Below, piece after piece: positions 930 to 7,239 of a stretch of DNA of 64,000 nucleotides (position 1 is its first letter; the number at the start of each line of letters is the position of its first letter). The stretch is from Tremella fuciformis. Taxonomy: Eukaryota; Basidiomycota; Tremellomycetes; Tremellales; Tremellaceae. A program made the position numbers and the translations under genes. The stretch spans positions 6,882,001-6,946,000 of the forward strand of contig CP136490.1 of the NCBI GenBank assembly GCA_032768795.1, read 5' to 3'. The notes under the pieces were generated by a model that saw only the letters and a list, made by a program, of their open reading frames with translations, was not told the origin of the DNA and did no database searches.

Positions 930-3569
930 ATGTCTCGCTTCGTCCGGGCGGTGAGCGCCTGCCTTTACAGTCTTCAGCTTGACGACCTTGACGATGAATG
1001 GGAAACGCCTGAGCTGATCACGTACAGTCAAAGTACCGCCATGTGTATGGCGAAAAGTCCAAGGTGCACTATGAGAACGCCAAGATCTCGGGCAGCGCCT
1101 GGGACACGGATCTCATCACAGCTGGAGGAAAGTACATGGCGGTGAACTGGCAGGTGGCCGGTGGGGGTGTGAGCAGATTGTCTGGGTGATATTGCCAAGC
1201 TGAAGATCCTTAGGCTTTCGCCATTCTACCTCTCTTCTCGCCTTACACCCCTCCCACACCGGAAGGCTTCCCGCAGAAGCTGCCTGACATCCTTCCTCTG
1301 GCAAGAGGGCACACTGCACCGGTGCTTGACACGGCCTGGTCCCCCTTTGATGACAACCTAGTCGCTTCAGGGGGTGAAGATGGAAAGAGTGAGGACGCTG
1401 TCTACATTTGTTCCTTTCGCAGTGCTCATTAAACAGTCTGCATCTGGAAGATCGACGACAACATGTTCGATAGCTGGGGAGAAGACCACTGGGCGCCTGA
1501 GGACCTATCTCCTGCCGCTCGACTCAGCGCAGGCGGAAGGTGAGTATCTCAGCACGCCTATGCATGTGCTGCTTAGCCTGTAGGAAGGTCGGCCAGGTCA
1601 TCTTTCACCCTACCTCGTCCAACCTCCTGACGGCGACGTCTGGCGACCACATCGTCAGGCTGTTCGATGTGTCGAAGGCCGAAGCAGATGCGACAATCCT
1701 CCTCTCTGGGCACGGAGATTCGATTCAGAGCATAGCATGGAACTCCGTTGGGACTACTCTCGCTACTGTCAGCCTAACTGCGGGAAGTGTGTTTTGAAAT
1801 TGACGGGTCCAGACCTGCCGTGACAAGAAGTTGCGACTCTTCGATCCTCGAGCTGGCAAGGATGCTGTCAGGGTGACCGAGGGTCACTCTGGCGTGAAAG
1901 GCTCCAGAGTTGTTTGGCTTGGTGACCGAGACAGGATCGCGACTACTGGTGTACGCTCCAGACCTGCCGAATCGGCTGAGCTCACAATCAGTTCAGCAGA
2001 ATGTCTGACCGGCAACTGGGGCTTTGGGACACATCAGGCCTAAAGAACCTGGAGATGAACTCGCTTGACTCGAGCGCGTAAGCTTTTGCCTAGCCAATCA
2101 AGTCCACGCTCACTGGCAGTGGGGTCCTCATGCCTTTCTTCGCGGAGGGCAACGACGTTCTTTTCATTGCTGGCAAAGGGTGATACACGGGTCTGCTAGC
2201 CAGCGGTAATGCTGACTCTCAGTGATGGCAACATTCGATACTACGAGTACGAGGGCGATGCTCTTCACTTCTTGTCAGAGTATAAGTCGGCCGACCCGCG
2301 TGAGTATCGAGCTCTCTTTATCGACACAGCCGCTGACGAGCAGAGCGAGGCATGTGCATGCTGCCACGCCGAGCGCTGGACGTCGGGCAAAATGAGATTG
2401 CGCGGACGTACAAGCTGTACGGTAGCTCGATCGAGCCTCTTTCCTGGATCGTACCACGAAAAGCCGAGTCTTTCCAGTCGGAGTGAGTCTGCTGAGTCTC
2501 TCATATGCCCGGTCTAATGTCTAGCATCTTCCCGCCCGCCGCGTCCATTCAGCCCGCCCAGACAGCCGCAGACTTCTTCAGTGGAAAGAACGCGCGTCCG
2601 AAGCTTGTGGATCTGGAGACGCAAGCCGTATCCTCATCTTCGGAGCCCATCCCTGTTACGCCTTCCGCCCCAAAAAAGTCGCAAACCGCGCCTGCCACTT
2701 TCGCCTCGCCTACGCCCACGCCCAAAGAGGAGCCGAAGCCGAAAGAGCCCGAACCCGCACCTGCGGCTTCTGCCGCTGCTCCGGCACCAGAGCCGGATTT
2801 GACGGCGAAGGAGCTGGAGATTGCTCAGCCTGATGAGCCGGATAGCGATGAAGAGCCGTCGCCTGCACCGGTCAGATCTTCTCCGCCCTCAGCTGTAGCA
2901 GCATCGCCTGCTTCAACACCTGCGGTCAAAGAGGTGCCTTCACCTGCGCCAAATGATGTTCCTACGGTAGGTTGCTATCTGGGAAGATCTGTTGCTGACT
3001 CGGGTAGCCCAAAGACACTCTGCTTGTCAAGAAGCTGTCTTTGAAAGCCACAACGCCTACACGTGGATCACCACTCTCGGCGGGCTACGACCTGTATGCA
3101 GCCGAGGACAAGGTGGTGCCCGCGCGAGGCAAGGCGTTGGTCGACCTGCAACTGTCCATAGCAGTGCCCGAGGGAACATATGGCCGAGTAGCTCCCAGAA
3201 GTGGTCTCGGTGAGTTGCTTGTTCGCGTGCCGAGGCGAAGCTGAATGACAGCCTCGAAGCACTCTATACACACAGGGGCAGGTGTGATTGACGCGGACTA
3301 TCGGGGACCAGTCATGGTGCTGCTATTCAACTTGGGAGCCGAGGACTTTTCAGGTAAGCTGTCCTACCGACCGTACCCAGCTAAGCTCTAGTCAAATCTG
3401 GTGACCGTATCGCTCAGCTCGTGTTGGAAAAGATCGTCATGGCCCCGATCTTGGAGGTCGAGGTGCGCTGTTGTTGCGGAGCTGCATTGCATCGACTGAC
3501 GATTAGGACCTAGATGCAACTGCCAGGGGTATGGGAGGGTTTGGCTCCACCGGCGGCTTTGGCGTTTGA
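930..3569 (+). CDS. CRN1-DUT1: Coronin-dUTPase fusion protein
   Basis: One spliced frame encodes coronin followed by dUTPase. I count 15 exons totalling 2004 nt (667 codons plus stop), all joining in phase. Residues 1 to about 400 are the coronin beta-propeller: MSRFVRA start, [77 protein letters not shown]. The coronin extension [21 protein letters not shown] follows, then a Pro/Ala/Glu/Ser linker in place of the usual coiled coil. From residue 523 (exon 3008-3209) comes dUTPase with all five motifs: [34 protein letters not shown] and GFGSTG. No in-frame ATG lies between the extension and the dUTPase. Coronin binds actin and Arp2/3; dUTPase hydrolyses dUTP to dUMP. Two overlapping transcripts cannot be excluded, but the sequence shows one frame. 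Confidence 0.88.
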
Positions 3570-3673: not shown

Positions 3674-4817
3674 CTAGAGATTTCCGTTGAAGAATGCCGT
3701 CAGGGTAGCGAATACGTCTGCGTAGGCTGCGCGAGTCTTAGGGTCGTTGAGCTACGAATCAGCTTTCGACATGATGAGCAGGATGGCACAGCGCACGTCT
3801 CCCCTTGCGGCGGTAAAGCCGTGCAGTTGGTCCCTGTACCACTTCAACACGCATCTGTCGCCGAATGGCTTGGCCTTGATGACCGCCTGGAAGCCGTTGA
3901 CCTGGTAGTGAGCTGAAGACTGGATCTGGATCATGGACGAGACTGACGAGATCCTCGTCTTCGTTCATCGAAGGCAGCAGGCAGGTGGGGACATTGATCT
4001 TCTCTGCGGCCGCGGCGTTGACTTGCTTGCTATCGCTCAGAAGAATCTTCAAGGAGCTCTCGAGGTGACCCACCCGAAGTGTATCATAGCGAGTGCGTCG
4101 AATTGCGGTACAAGCGCCACGACATTGCCTCCCCTGCACCGTCAGCCTCGACGCGCACCCGGCATCTGCTCCTCGTTGCGCGACGCACCAGCAGAATCCA
4201 CAGCCGGCTACGCGCTCGTAGCCTTTGCGCCTGAGCTCGTCGATGAGCTGCGGCATGCGCTCGGCATTCTTGGGGATCCCGCCCCAGCCAGCATCAAACT
4301 TGGCCCGGATCGGCGCCCTGCGCTCAGCACTCGTCTATGCTGGGACGGAGACGCACTTCTCCTCTGCGGGCAGCTTGACAAACGTCGCAAAGTCGAGCGA
4401 CTCGCCCTGGTGCACATCGGGAATGAACACGTCGTACCCCACACTGGCAAGGATATCGGCGCCTCACAGATTTCAGCAGGACCACGAAGGGGCTCGGTCG
4501 CCGAGGCGCCTGTGCTGACGGACGTACCTTGGAAGTTCTGCGAGCAGAAGCCGCCAATATCGTAGAGATATACGATGGCCTTCTTGGACGGCTTGGTGCT
4601 GCTAAAGTAAGTCTTGAGACCGCCCAGGCCCTACTTGTCAGCTGCCCCCAACGAGTGAGAGATGTGGGACCGACCTCGGCGCCTTCGAGCCACCGCCCTT
4701 TGGCCTGGTAGTCGATCTCGACCGCAGGCAGCGAGTGGCACACTGCCTCGTCAGCCACTCATGTTGAAGTGCAGTAGAGGGGAAGGACTGACGCTCTTCG
4801 CCGGTGGGAATGGCCAT
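3674..4817 (-). CDS. Dienelactone hydrolase family protein
   Basis: An alpha/beta-hydrolase of the dienelactone hydrolase family, usually a small soluble Cys-Asp-His hydrolase. Exons on the minus strand give ADEAVCHSLPAVEIDYQAKG, a GLKTYFSS..AIVYLYDIGGF block, GADILASVGYDVFIPDVHQGE, the nucleophile elbow GCGFCW|GG split by an intron, INVPTCLLPSMNEDED, and a C-terminal block with the catalytic-His motif QLHGF, ending NGNL-stop. The open frame at the N-terminus begins with GTG at 4758. An upstream ATG at 4817 joins it in phase through a 35-nt GT..AG intron and lies about 45 nt below a TATATATAT box, so I prefer 4817; this is the least certain part. It converges on the coronin-dUTPase gene with about 105 nt between stops. 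Substrate unknown. Confidence 0.8.
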
Positions 4818-5142: not shown

Positions 5143-7239
5143 TTAGACCATCTCGTGGCCCTTGCGCTTCTCGCCGTTGAGCCCGGTGGACTCGTTGTGG
5201 TCGACCGCAGTGGCGGTCTCGGCGTGCTGGACATCTTGGGCGATCTTGTCGAGTCCAATCTGCTTGGCGACTCGCTCCCTTCGCTCCCTGTCCTCCGCGC
5301 CTGATGCGTCGTGGAAGATGGCGTCGACCTCTTCCAGGCTGAGACCCTTGAGCTCTGGGACAATCTGCGGAATGAGCTTTCTTCTCACGTCACGCTTCAA
5401 AGACGGCCAGATGGCCCGACAAAAGATTCTTCCAGAGAGGGAGGGCAGGCTTAAGGGCTCAGTCTTTAACACTCACGAAGATGGAGAAGAGGAAACCGGC
5501 GATGCAGAAGCACATGAAAGTGATGTATGTCTTGTAGCCAATGTTGGTGATCATGACGGGGGTGACCATGGCCACGGTGAAGTTCATGATCCAGCTGAGT
5601 AGATCAGTCATGTCCCAAAATCAAACGGTAGACTGCTCACTTGACAGCTGACGAGATGGACATGCCCTTGGCGCGCATGTCAAGGGGGAAGACCTCGGCC
5701 GAGACGACCCAGGCGAGAGGACCCCAGGTAACGGCAAAGTTGGCAATGTACCAATAGACTGCGAGTTAACGTAAATCTGAATGTGGCAAGATTTATTCAC
5801 TCATGAAGACGGCACCGTTACCGGCCTTCTTGTGGTTGCCAAAGTCGTTACCGTAGACAGCGACGATCGCAGCGATAGTAGCGTGCGAAATGGCCATGTT
5901 CGCCTCACCCCAGGCAAGCATGGGCCTTCGACCAAAGTTGTCAACGAAGAGAACGGCAGGAATTGTCATGATAAAGTTGACGATACCGACCACACCGGTC
6001 GCCAGCAAGCTGATGGTGCCGGTCGCGCTCGAGCTGGAGCCAGAGAGGCCGATCTGCGTGAAGATCGTAGGGGCGTAGTAGATAATTGCGTTGATGCCTG
6101 TCCACTGCTGGAGGCCCTGTGTTGTAGCACCGATGAAGAGACGGTGAAGCAGGGGCTTGGTGGTCAAGAGACGCTTGTATTCGAGAAGGGTGACGCGGCC
6201 GTTGACCTCATCAATGCCGTAGCGCTCCTTGGCGGCCTCGCGCTCGACGAGGCGCTCAGCCTGAAGGGCACGGAACTCGTATTGGACTTCGGGGGACTCG
6301 GCGGGCATGGACCGGAGGTAGGCGAGGTTGTGCAGGCACTCCTCCTCACGTCCTGGGAGTCAGGAACGGTCATATCACTGGGTGTCAATCAAGACGTACC
6401 CTTAAGCATAAGCCATCGAGGCGAGAAGGGCAGGAAGCAAGCGCCGACACAGAGAATGACCGCGGGAATGAGCTGCAGGGCGAGAGGAAGTCGCCACGCG
6501 GCATTGCTCTGGCCGGGAACATGGGTGCCGCCGATGTCTGTTTTTCAGCTGAAGCACTTTCATCTCGTCGATGAGCTCACAGTTGGTCCCGTATCCGATC
6601 CAGTAGCTGATGAGGATACCGACTGACCTGTCAGTATCTGTCCAGCCTCGCGTGATTCTGAACTCACAGGTGATGGCCAACTGCTGCAGGGCAACCAGGG
6701 ATCCTCGGATACCCGGAGGAGCGAGCTCGGCGTTGAACATGGGCACGAGCATGGACAGTGCGCCGACGCCGAGACCGGCAACGAACCGGCCGGCGTAGAT
6801 GCAACCGACGTCCGAGTTGGCAGCAGCCTGAGTGATGGTGCCAATCATGAAGATGACACACCAGCCCGAGATCGAGTACTTTCGCGAGTATTTGTCGGCA
6901 GTCCAGCCGGCAACGAGGGACCCGAAGAACGCGCCGAGCTCAAGGATGGAGGTGAGAAGACCTTTGGTGTTGGAGTTTGTAAGCTGTTGGTCAGCGCGAC
7001 CACCCTGTGCCGATGCACAGGAGACAAACGGTTTTGGTGTATCGGTCGACGAAGATTTCCATGACCTGAACCTGACCAAAGACACCCTGGTTGTAGCCGT
7101 AGAGGACACCGCCGAGGGACGCAAAGAGGGTCAAGGCGAGACATTTGCCGTTGTTGAAGAGACCTCGCCATCCCGCCTGCTGGGCGTTGTGGACGAGGAG
7201 CGCGTCAAAGTCGCCCCCGCCAGCTGCGCCGCCCGCCAT
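5143..7239 (-). CDS. MFS sugar porter (hexose-transporter-like)
   Basis: A twelve-helix sugar porter of the major facilitator superfamily in the plasma membrane. The start is ATG at 7237-7239 (MAGGAAGGGDF). Recognisable blocks in order are FASLGGVLYGYNQGVFGQVQ (TM1), GLLTSILELGAFFGSLVAGW with ADKYSRKYS, GRFVAGLGVGALSMLVPMFN, LAPPGIRGSLVALQQLAIT, a central cytosolic loop with RSMPAESPEVQYEFRALQ, TTQGLQQWTGINAIIYYAPT, FVDNFGRRPML, and the PELKGLSLEEVDAIF tail. At least six short introns interrupt it. The hydrophilic C-terminus ends HEMV-stop. The QQWTGIN and PELKGLSLEE signatures are typical of fungal hexose/polyol/quinate porters. The substrate cannot be read from the sequence. Confidence 0.9.

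What the first reader, a model, noticed from the sequence alone, without database searches (positions are those of the whole stretch)
930..3569. Coronin and dUTPase fused in one spliced frame
All 15 exons I can define from the coronin start to the dUTPase stop total 2004 nt and join in phase. There is no in-frame ATG between the coronin extension (MSSIFPP region is intronic) and the first dUTPase motif. The coiled coil normally ending coronin is replaced by a Pro/Ala/Glu linker leading into a dUTPase with all five motifs. An actin regulator joined to a nucleotide-pool sanitiser is unexpected: trimeric dUTPase could substitute for the coronin coiled coil as the oligomerisation module, or actin patches could position dUTPase.
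Basis: partly seen in the sequence, partly recalled or inferred. Interest (0 to 1): 0.88.

Follow-up and report, generated by a model that had tools for sequence, protein, structure and literature searches.

The report
Coronin fused to a dUTPase
A fungal gene really does encode one protein joining an actin regulator (coronin) to an enzyme that removes uracil nucleotides (dUTPase), but this fusion was already described in this class of fungi in 2011, so it is a known oddity whose function is still untested.

Summary
Fifteen exons (930-3569) join in phase to 2004 nt / 667 aa: a short coronin, a Pro/Ala/Glu-rich linker, and a dUTPase with all five motifs. A database protein is identical over 667 aa, and 28 further listed proteins join the two domains, in Tremellales and Trichosporonales. 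Two homologues sit on contigs too short for such introns, so they are probably transcripts.

It is not new. Eckert et al. 2011 (PMC3203266; section read) report dUTPase in place of the coiled coil in Tremellomycete coronins, with EST/cDNA support, a second free dUTPase, intact motifs and the trimerisation idea.

Added here: this genome has one short coronin and a second, free dUTPase. Phaffia, another Tremellomycete, keeps a coiled-coil-like tail behind the same linker motif. Free Tremellales dUTPases examined carry a C-terminal KKxK tail that fused ones lack. The two copies here share three intron positions and phases. Most likely the dUTPase is active and trimerises the coronin; neither is tested.

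The parts
930..2482 (+). exons 1-10 of 15: coronin beta-propeller and most of the C-terminal extension (residues 1-374)
   Evidence: exon borders; Pfam DUF1899, WD40, WD40_4; the seven best Foldseek rows are coronin structures
2525..2966 (+). exon 11: end of the coronin extension and Pro/Ala/Glu-rich linker (to residue 522)
   Evidence: residues 415-520 have pLDDT under 50
2808..2858 (+). conserved acidic linker motif [17 protein letters not shown]
   Evidence: a motif of this form is in 29 of 29 fused proteins and 1 of 94 listed coronins without dUTPase (Phaffia)
2967..3007 (+). junction intron (41 nt, phase 0) between linker and dUTPase exons
3008..3569 (+). exons 12-15: dUTPase domain (residues 523-667), motifs I-V intact, stop at 3567-3569
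   Evidence: Pfam PF00692 145 bits; motifs; solved dUTPases matched
2483..2524 (+). intron 10, holding two ATGs (2505, 2517) in frame with exon 11: possible internal starts, no evidence of use
   Evidence: read

Best explanation
A genuine single-gene coronin-dUTPase fusion, probably inherited from an ancestor of Tremellales and Trichosporonales. A duplicated, intron-bearing dUTPase gene was joined behind the coronin linker in the place of the coiled coil (the replacement is seen by comparison; the order of events is inferred). The protein most likely works as a trimeric coronin: three dUTPase domains assemble the shared-active-site trimer and hold three actin-binding propellers on flexible linkers, as the coiled coil did before. 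The dUTPase is probably still catalytic and supplies a cytoplasmic, actin-associated pool of enzyme, while the separate free dUTPase, whose basic tail looks like a nuclear signal, serves the nucleus (inferred). Rough odds: one fused protein 0.97; dUTPase catalytically active 0.8; trimer replaces coiled coil 0.65; compartment split 0.4.
For: One open spliced frame of 667 aa identical to a database protein. 29 listed proteins join coronin WD40/WD40_4 to dUTPase, 26 of them with DUF1899 as well, linkers 155-225 aa. Two homologues on contigs with 118 and 232 nt to spare beyond the CDS, where this gene's 14 introns take 636 nt: probably cDNA, if those species have similar introns. Published EST/cDNA support in Filobasidiella. 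By my patterns, motifs I, II, III and V in 29 of 29 and IV in 27 of 29; the misses are two C. deuterogattii models, of which the one printed shows a gap there. Phaffia (Cystofilobasidiales) has the linker motif followed by a coiled-coil-like tail where fused proteins have dUTPase. A crude heptad score has median 1.25 in 94 coronins without dUTPase and 0 in 29 fused linkers. Tree of 71 domains: fused 90/86, free Tremellales 100/98, both together 97/79. Three introns at the same positions and phases in both copies of this genome. KKxK-type tail after motif V in 14 of 14 free Tremellales dUTPases printed (read by eye) and in 0 of 29 fused.
Against: No biochemical or localisation data. Fused and fused+free groups are not starred in the tree; the AU test does not reject fused+Agaricomycete (p 0.257) and only borders on rejecting free+Agaricomycete (0.0508). 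In the first, larger tree the fused rows were not resolved as one group; rows were dropped after seeing it. The coronin trimer-motif pattern did not discriminate (52 of 94 without dUTPase, 16 of 29 fused, the latter inside the coronin extension). The heptad score is 0 by construction for any window with a proline, and 5 of 29 fused linkers score above 0 (0.48-1.04). A 157-aa dUTPase-only model of the fused type is annotated in Cryptococcus bacillisporus (P0263). The evidence that the fused copy is under stronger constraint is weak (see full report). AlphaFold mean pLDDT is 63.5 for the best of five models (worst 34.9) and no trimer could be modelled.
Confidence: 0.65

Rival explanations
1. The dUTPase part is only an oligomerisation module: its catalytic activity is no longer needed because a free dUTPase exists.
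For: A free dUTPase is present in this genome and in other Tremellales; the trimer alone would suffice to replace a coiled coil. The Trichosporonales-type fused domains sit on a long stem (0.62).
Against: All five motifs, including active-site motifs, are kept in 27 of 29 fused proteins; a mere scaffold would be free to lose motif V. Diagnostic columns lean to the fused copy being the less changed one, but only 6 against 2 once two gap columns are set aside.
Confidence: 0.17
2. Two products from one locus: the full fusion plus a linker-dUTPase or dUTPase-only protein from an internal start.
For: Two ATGs in intron 10 in frame with exon 11 (2505, 2517); a 157-aa dUTPase-only model beginning near the junction exon is annotated in C. 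bacillisporus (P0263).
Against: No Met between residues 334 and 611 in the spliced protein. The annotated split model may be an error, since other Cryptococcus species have the full fusion (P0079, P0083). I could not inspect transcripts of this organism.
Confidence: 0.15
3. Two adjacent genes wrongly joined (gene-model artefact).
For: Each half alone is a known family, and the linker is compositionally simple. Public models of this gene are sometimes split or gapped (P0263, P0121).
Against: Identical 667-aa protein, 28 other listed fusions, contigs too short for introns, published EST/cDNA, coding linker with a motif kept in 29 of 29.
Confidence: 0.03

Closest known systems
Tremellomycete coronin-dUTPase (Eckert et al. 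2011, PMC3203266)
   Same: Same domain order, coiled coil absent, all dUTPase motifs, second free dUTPase in the genome, trimerisation proposed.
   Different: Only another species; no difference in kind.
Conventional short coronin (e.g. Phaffia P0131)
   Same: Propeller and WD40_4 extension; in Phaffia also the acidic linker motif.
   Different: That ends in a coiled-coil-like tail; this ends in dUTPase.
Trimeric dUTPase (PF00692)
   Same: Motifs I-V; best PDB matches 4oop and 2pc5 at 199 bits.
   Different: Attached behind a coronin; no basic tail.
Tandem (class-3) coronin with inserted D-glycerate 3-kinase (Eckert et al. 2011, passage)
   Same: Another coronin-metabolic enzyme fusion, apparently present in this genome too.
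   Different: Different coronin class, different enzyme, inserted in the middle.

Membership tests
short coronin | N-terminal coronin domain (DUF1899, WD40, WD40_4) | tested here: met
   Pfam; Foldseek to coronin structures
short coronin | C-terminal coiled coil | tested here: not met
   linker Pro fraction 0.24 and no proline-free 28-residue window in P0058; dUTPase stands in its place
trimeric dUTPase | five conserved motifs | tested here: met
   and alignment to solved dUTPases
trimeric dUTPase | homotrimer with shared active sites; dUTP hydrolysis | not testable with these tools
   needs protein
Tremellomycete coronin-dUTPase | coronin and dUTPase in one transcript | tested here: inconclusive
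   open spliced frame and identical database protein; transcript support only in relatives
Tremellomycete coronin-dUTPase | additional free dUTPase in the genome | tested here: met
   G000:C1:5200781-5201558

The most novel reading that the evidence does not exclude
Tremellales split their dUTPase by compartment: a free, basic-tailed nuclear enzyme and a coronin-anchored cytoplasmic enzyme at cortical actin. Because the active site forms only in the trimer and its C-terminal motif closes over bound nucleotide (recalled), dUTP level could feed back on coronin oligomer geometry, coupling nucleotide state to actin remodelling.
Probability: 0.12. Interest if true: 0.65.

Novelty: already known. 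Interest (0 to 1): 0.3.

Why it matters
It shows an enzyme that is itself an obligate trimer standing in the place of a structural trimerisation helix, a natural test of whether coronin needs trimerisation as such. The 2011 paper left the actin-dUTP link as an open experimental question; five paper searches (listings only, the last showing 20 of 123) listed no later paper on it. The comparison here adds a candidate division of labour (basic-tailed free enzyme, tail-less fused enzyme) that can be tested by simple tagging.

Tried and rejected
Gene-model artefact: rejected (see rivals). Horizontal origin of the fused dUTPase, suggested by plant dUTPases (plant identity recalled) as best PDB hits: not favoured; the best tree groups it with free Tremellales dUTPases (97/79) and it shares three introns with the free copy. 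Coronin trimerisation motif as a discriminator: uninformative. Whether Filobasidiales carry the fusion: not settled; a free dUTPase of Filobasidium (P0249) was listed, but none of its coronins was. Vanrija P0122 is a coronin without dUTPase, but its tail resembles a truncated model; Saitozyma P0121 lacks the dUTPase Pfam hit yet ends in the dUTPase C-terminus. Both were left out of the 29. Whether Trichosporonales have a free dUTPase: none by name in the best 120; unknown. Pfam scan of three neighbouring frames (269-688 +, 4208-4627 -, 3759-4331 -) gave no family.

Limits: homologue lists show the best 120 only (of 537, 2694 and 7776 hits), and proteins are clustered at 90%, so counts are of listed clusters. 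Three of the 29 (P0087, P0088, P0092) lack DUF1899 and look cut at the N-terminus. Rows left out of both trees: P0091, P0093 (not entered), P0245 and P0248 (domain too short). Seven more were removed after seeing the first tree (script, used): C. elegans, Drosophila, Cyclostephanos, a 'bird' sequence, the C. bacillisporus split model, Cinnamomum, P0087 (identical to P0088). Tails were printed for 14 of the listed free Tremellales dUTPases, not for each of them. The strict motif patterns missed some free dUTPases too (I in 12, II in 13, V in 12 of 14). The class-3 coronin was recognised frame by frame, not modelled.

The single-transcript row of the membership test was lowered to inconclusive.

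Full report
What is there. The window lies at G000:C1:6882001-6946000 of a 28.1 Mb, 11-contig genome, unnamed; the coronin's 78-80% identity to Tremella and Kwoniella places it in or near Tremellales. Between 930 and 3569 on the + strand, 15 exons join into 2004 nt, 667 residues plus stop. All introns are GT..AG. The protein equals database protein P0058 letter for letter. Domains by Pfam: DUF1899 (3-61), WD40, WD40_4 (358-400), dUTPase (536-663). AlphaFold with 26 sequences gives two folded parts and a linker at 415-520 with pLDDT under 50; confidence is modest (mean 63.5 for the best of five models, 34.9 for the worst). In Foldseek the seven best rows are coronins; the 50 rows shown, of 1986, hold WD40 proteins and no dUTPase.

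Is the join real. Of the 120 proteins listed (of 537) for the dUTPase region among proteins of fusion-like length, 29 have coronin WD40/WD40_4 and dUTPase domains, P0058 included; 26 of them also have DUF1899. Names given cover Cryptococcus, Kwoniella, Dioszegia, Naematelia, Papiliotrema, Tremella, Kockovaella and Cutaneotrichosporon; the last is Trichosporonales, Dioszegia is Tremellales. Linkers from the FQxDIFP site to motif I are 155-225 residues. P0074 (678 aa) comes from a 2155-nt contig and P0076 (718 aa) from a 2389-nt contig, leaving 118 and 232 nt; the 14 introns here take 636 nt. If those species have similar introns, these contigs are transcripts; the source code 'lgn' I take, from recall, to be read assemblies. 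P0058's own contig (3188 nt) could be either. Six of 29 fused proteins have an in-frame Met in the linker, so its absence here is not a general rule.

Already in print. Eckert et al. 2011 (PMC3203266; [quoted passage not shown] A passage reports tandem coronins of Filobasidiella with an inserted D-glycerate 3-kinase. Searches with coronin, dUTPase, dUTP, actin, Cryptococcus, Crn1 and related terms (listings and abstract openings only) listed no later treatment.

Second copies in this genome. dUTPase (PF00692) hits two places: the window and G000:C1:5200868-5201201. The second reads as five exons, 183 aa (L008:3781-4558), free-standing, ending in a basic tail. DUF1899 hits only the window; the other strong coronin-like place is on C6, where two coronin-like parts lie in tandem, and three further hits are weak WD40-like ones. 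Between the two C6 parts lies a frame matching solved D-glycerate 3-kinase 6ckg at 7.9e-63; a second kinase-like place is on C2. So this organism appears to have both coronin-enzyme fusions.

How the fusion arose. Phaffia (Cystofilobasidiales) has a coronin with the same linker motif (LDIKQEEEDSENEDEQP) followed by what reads as a coiled coil. The motif is in 29 of 29 fused linkers, in 1 of 94 listed coronins without dUTPase (Phaffia itself), and in the Saitozyma and Vanrija models. Hence the linker is old coronin sequence and dUTPase stands where the coiled coil was. Introns at SGL^A (phase 1), F-S/E^V (phase 1) and E/D^ (phase 0) coincide in both dUTPase copies; the junction intron (phase 0) sits two codons off the free gene's first intron by my reading, which fits, but does not prove, capture of that intron. 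Tree of 71 domains: fused 90/86, free 100/98, together 97/79, only the free group starred; alternatives are not firmly excluded (p-AU 0.257 for fused+Agaricomycete, 0.0508 for free+Agaricomycete). In the first set of 78 the fused rows were unresolved.

Which copy changed more. Diagnostic columns: fused equals Agaricomycete against free in 8 (in two of which the free copy is a gap), free equals Agaricomycete against fused in 2, fused equals free in 4. In the larger tree the free clade has a stem of 0.27, but the fused Trichosporonales-type clade has one of 0.62. For this genome's own pair, identity to 12 Agaricomycete dUTPases is higher for the fused copy in 5 and for the free copy in 7. So the fused copy is at least not the decayed one; a claim that it is the better conserved would be too strong.

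How it probably works. Shown: propeller and dUTPase in one frame, motifs intact, coiled coil absent. Predicted: linker flexible. Inferred: homotrimer through dUTPase, since every active site of such enzymes is built from three chains (stated). Inferred: catalysis. Suggested: compartment split. After motif V, 14 of 14 free Tremellales dUTPases printed carry a KKxK-type tail (by eye); 0 of 29 fused do. In 8 of 13 Agaricomycete dUTPases printed a KKRK/KKRR stretch is at the N-terminus instead (class of these genera recalled). That such stretches act as nuclear signals is recalled, not tested.

Verdict. Low novelty; the biological question is open and testable.

Noticed in passing
L010:2748-6171 (G000:C6:1687748-1691171): Tandem coronin-like gene with a D-glycerate 3-kinase-like domain between its two coronin parts, as reported for Filobasidiella in 2011; a second kinase-like place lies at G000:C2:2261434-2262054.
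   Followed up: partly
database protein P0254: A 'bird' DUT protein (Spelaeornis/Elachura, 2175-nt contig) groups at 100/97 with the Papiliotrema laurentii fusion dUTPase: probably yeast contamination in a bird assembly.
   Followed up: partly
database proteins P0121, P0091, P0263: Some public gene models of the fusion look damaged: Saitozyma skips most of the dUTPase, a C. deuterogattii model lacks motif IV (P0093 as well, by pattern), and C. bacillisporus has a dUTPase-only model.
   Followed up: partly
window 2808-2858: Acidic linker motif (L-E-I-x-Q then Asp/Glu/Ser-rich) kept in 29 of 29 fused proteins and in Phaffia; it might be an Arp2/3-type acidic or kinase-site motif, not tested.
   Followed up: partly
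window 5793-7127, - strand: Sugar transporter (PF00083) downstream of the fusion gene.
   Followed up: no
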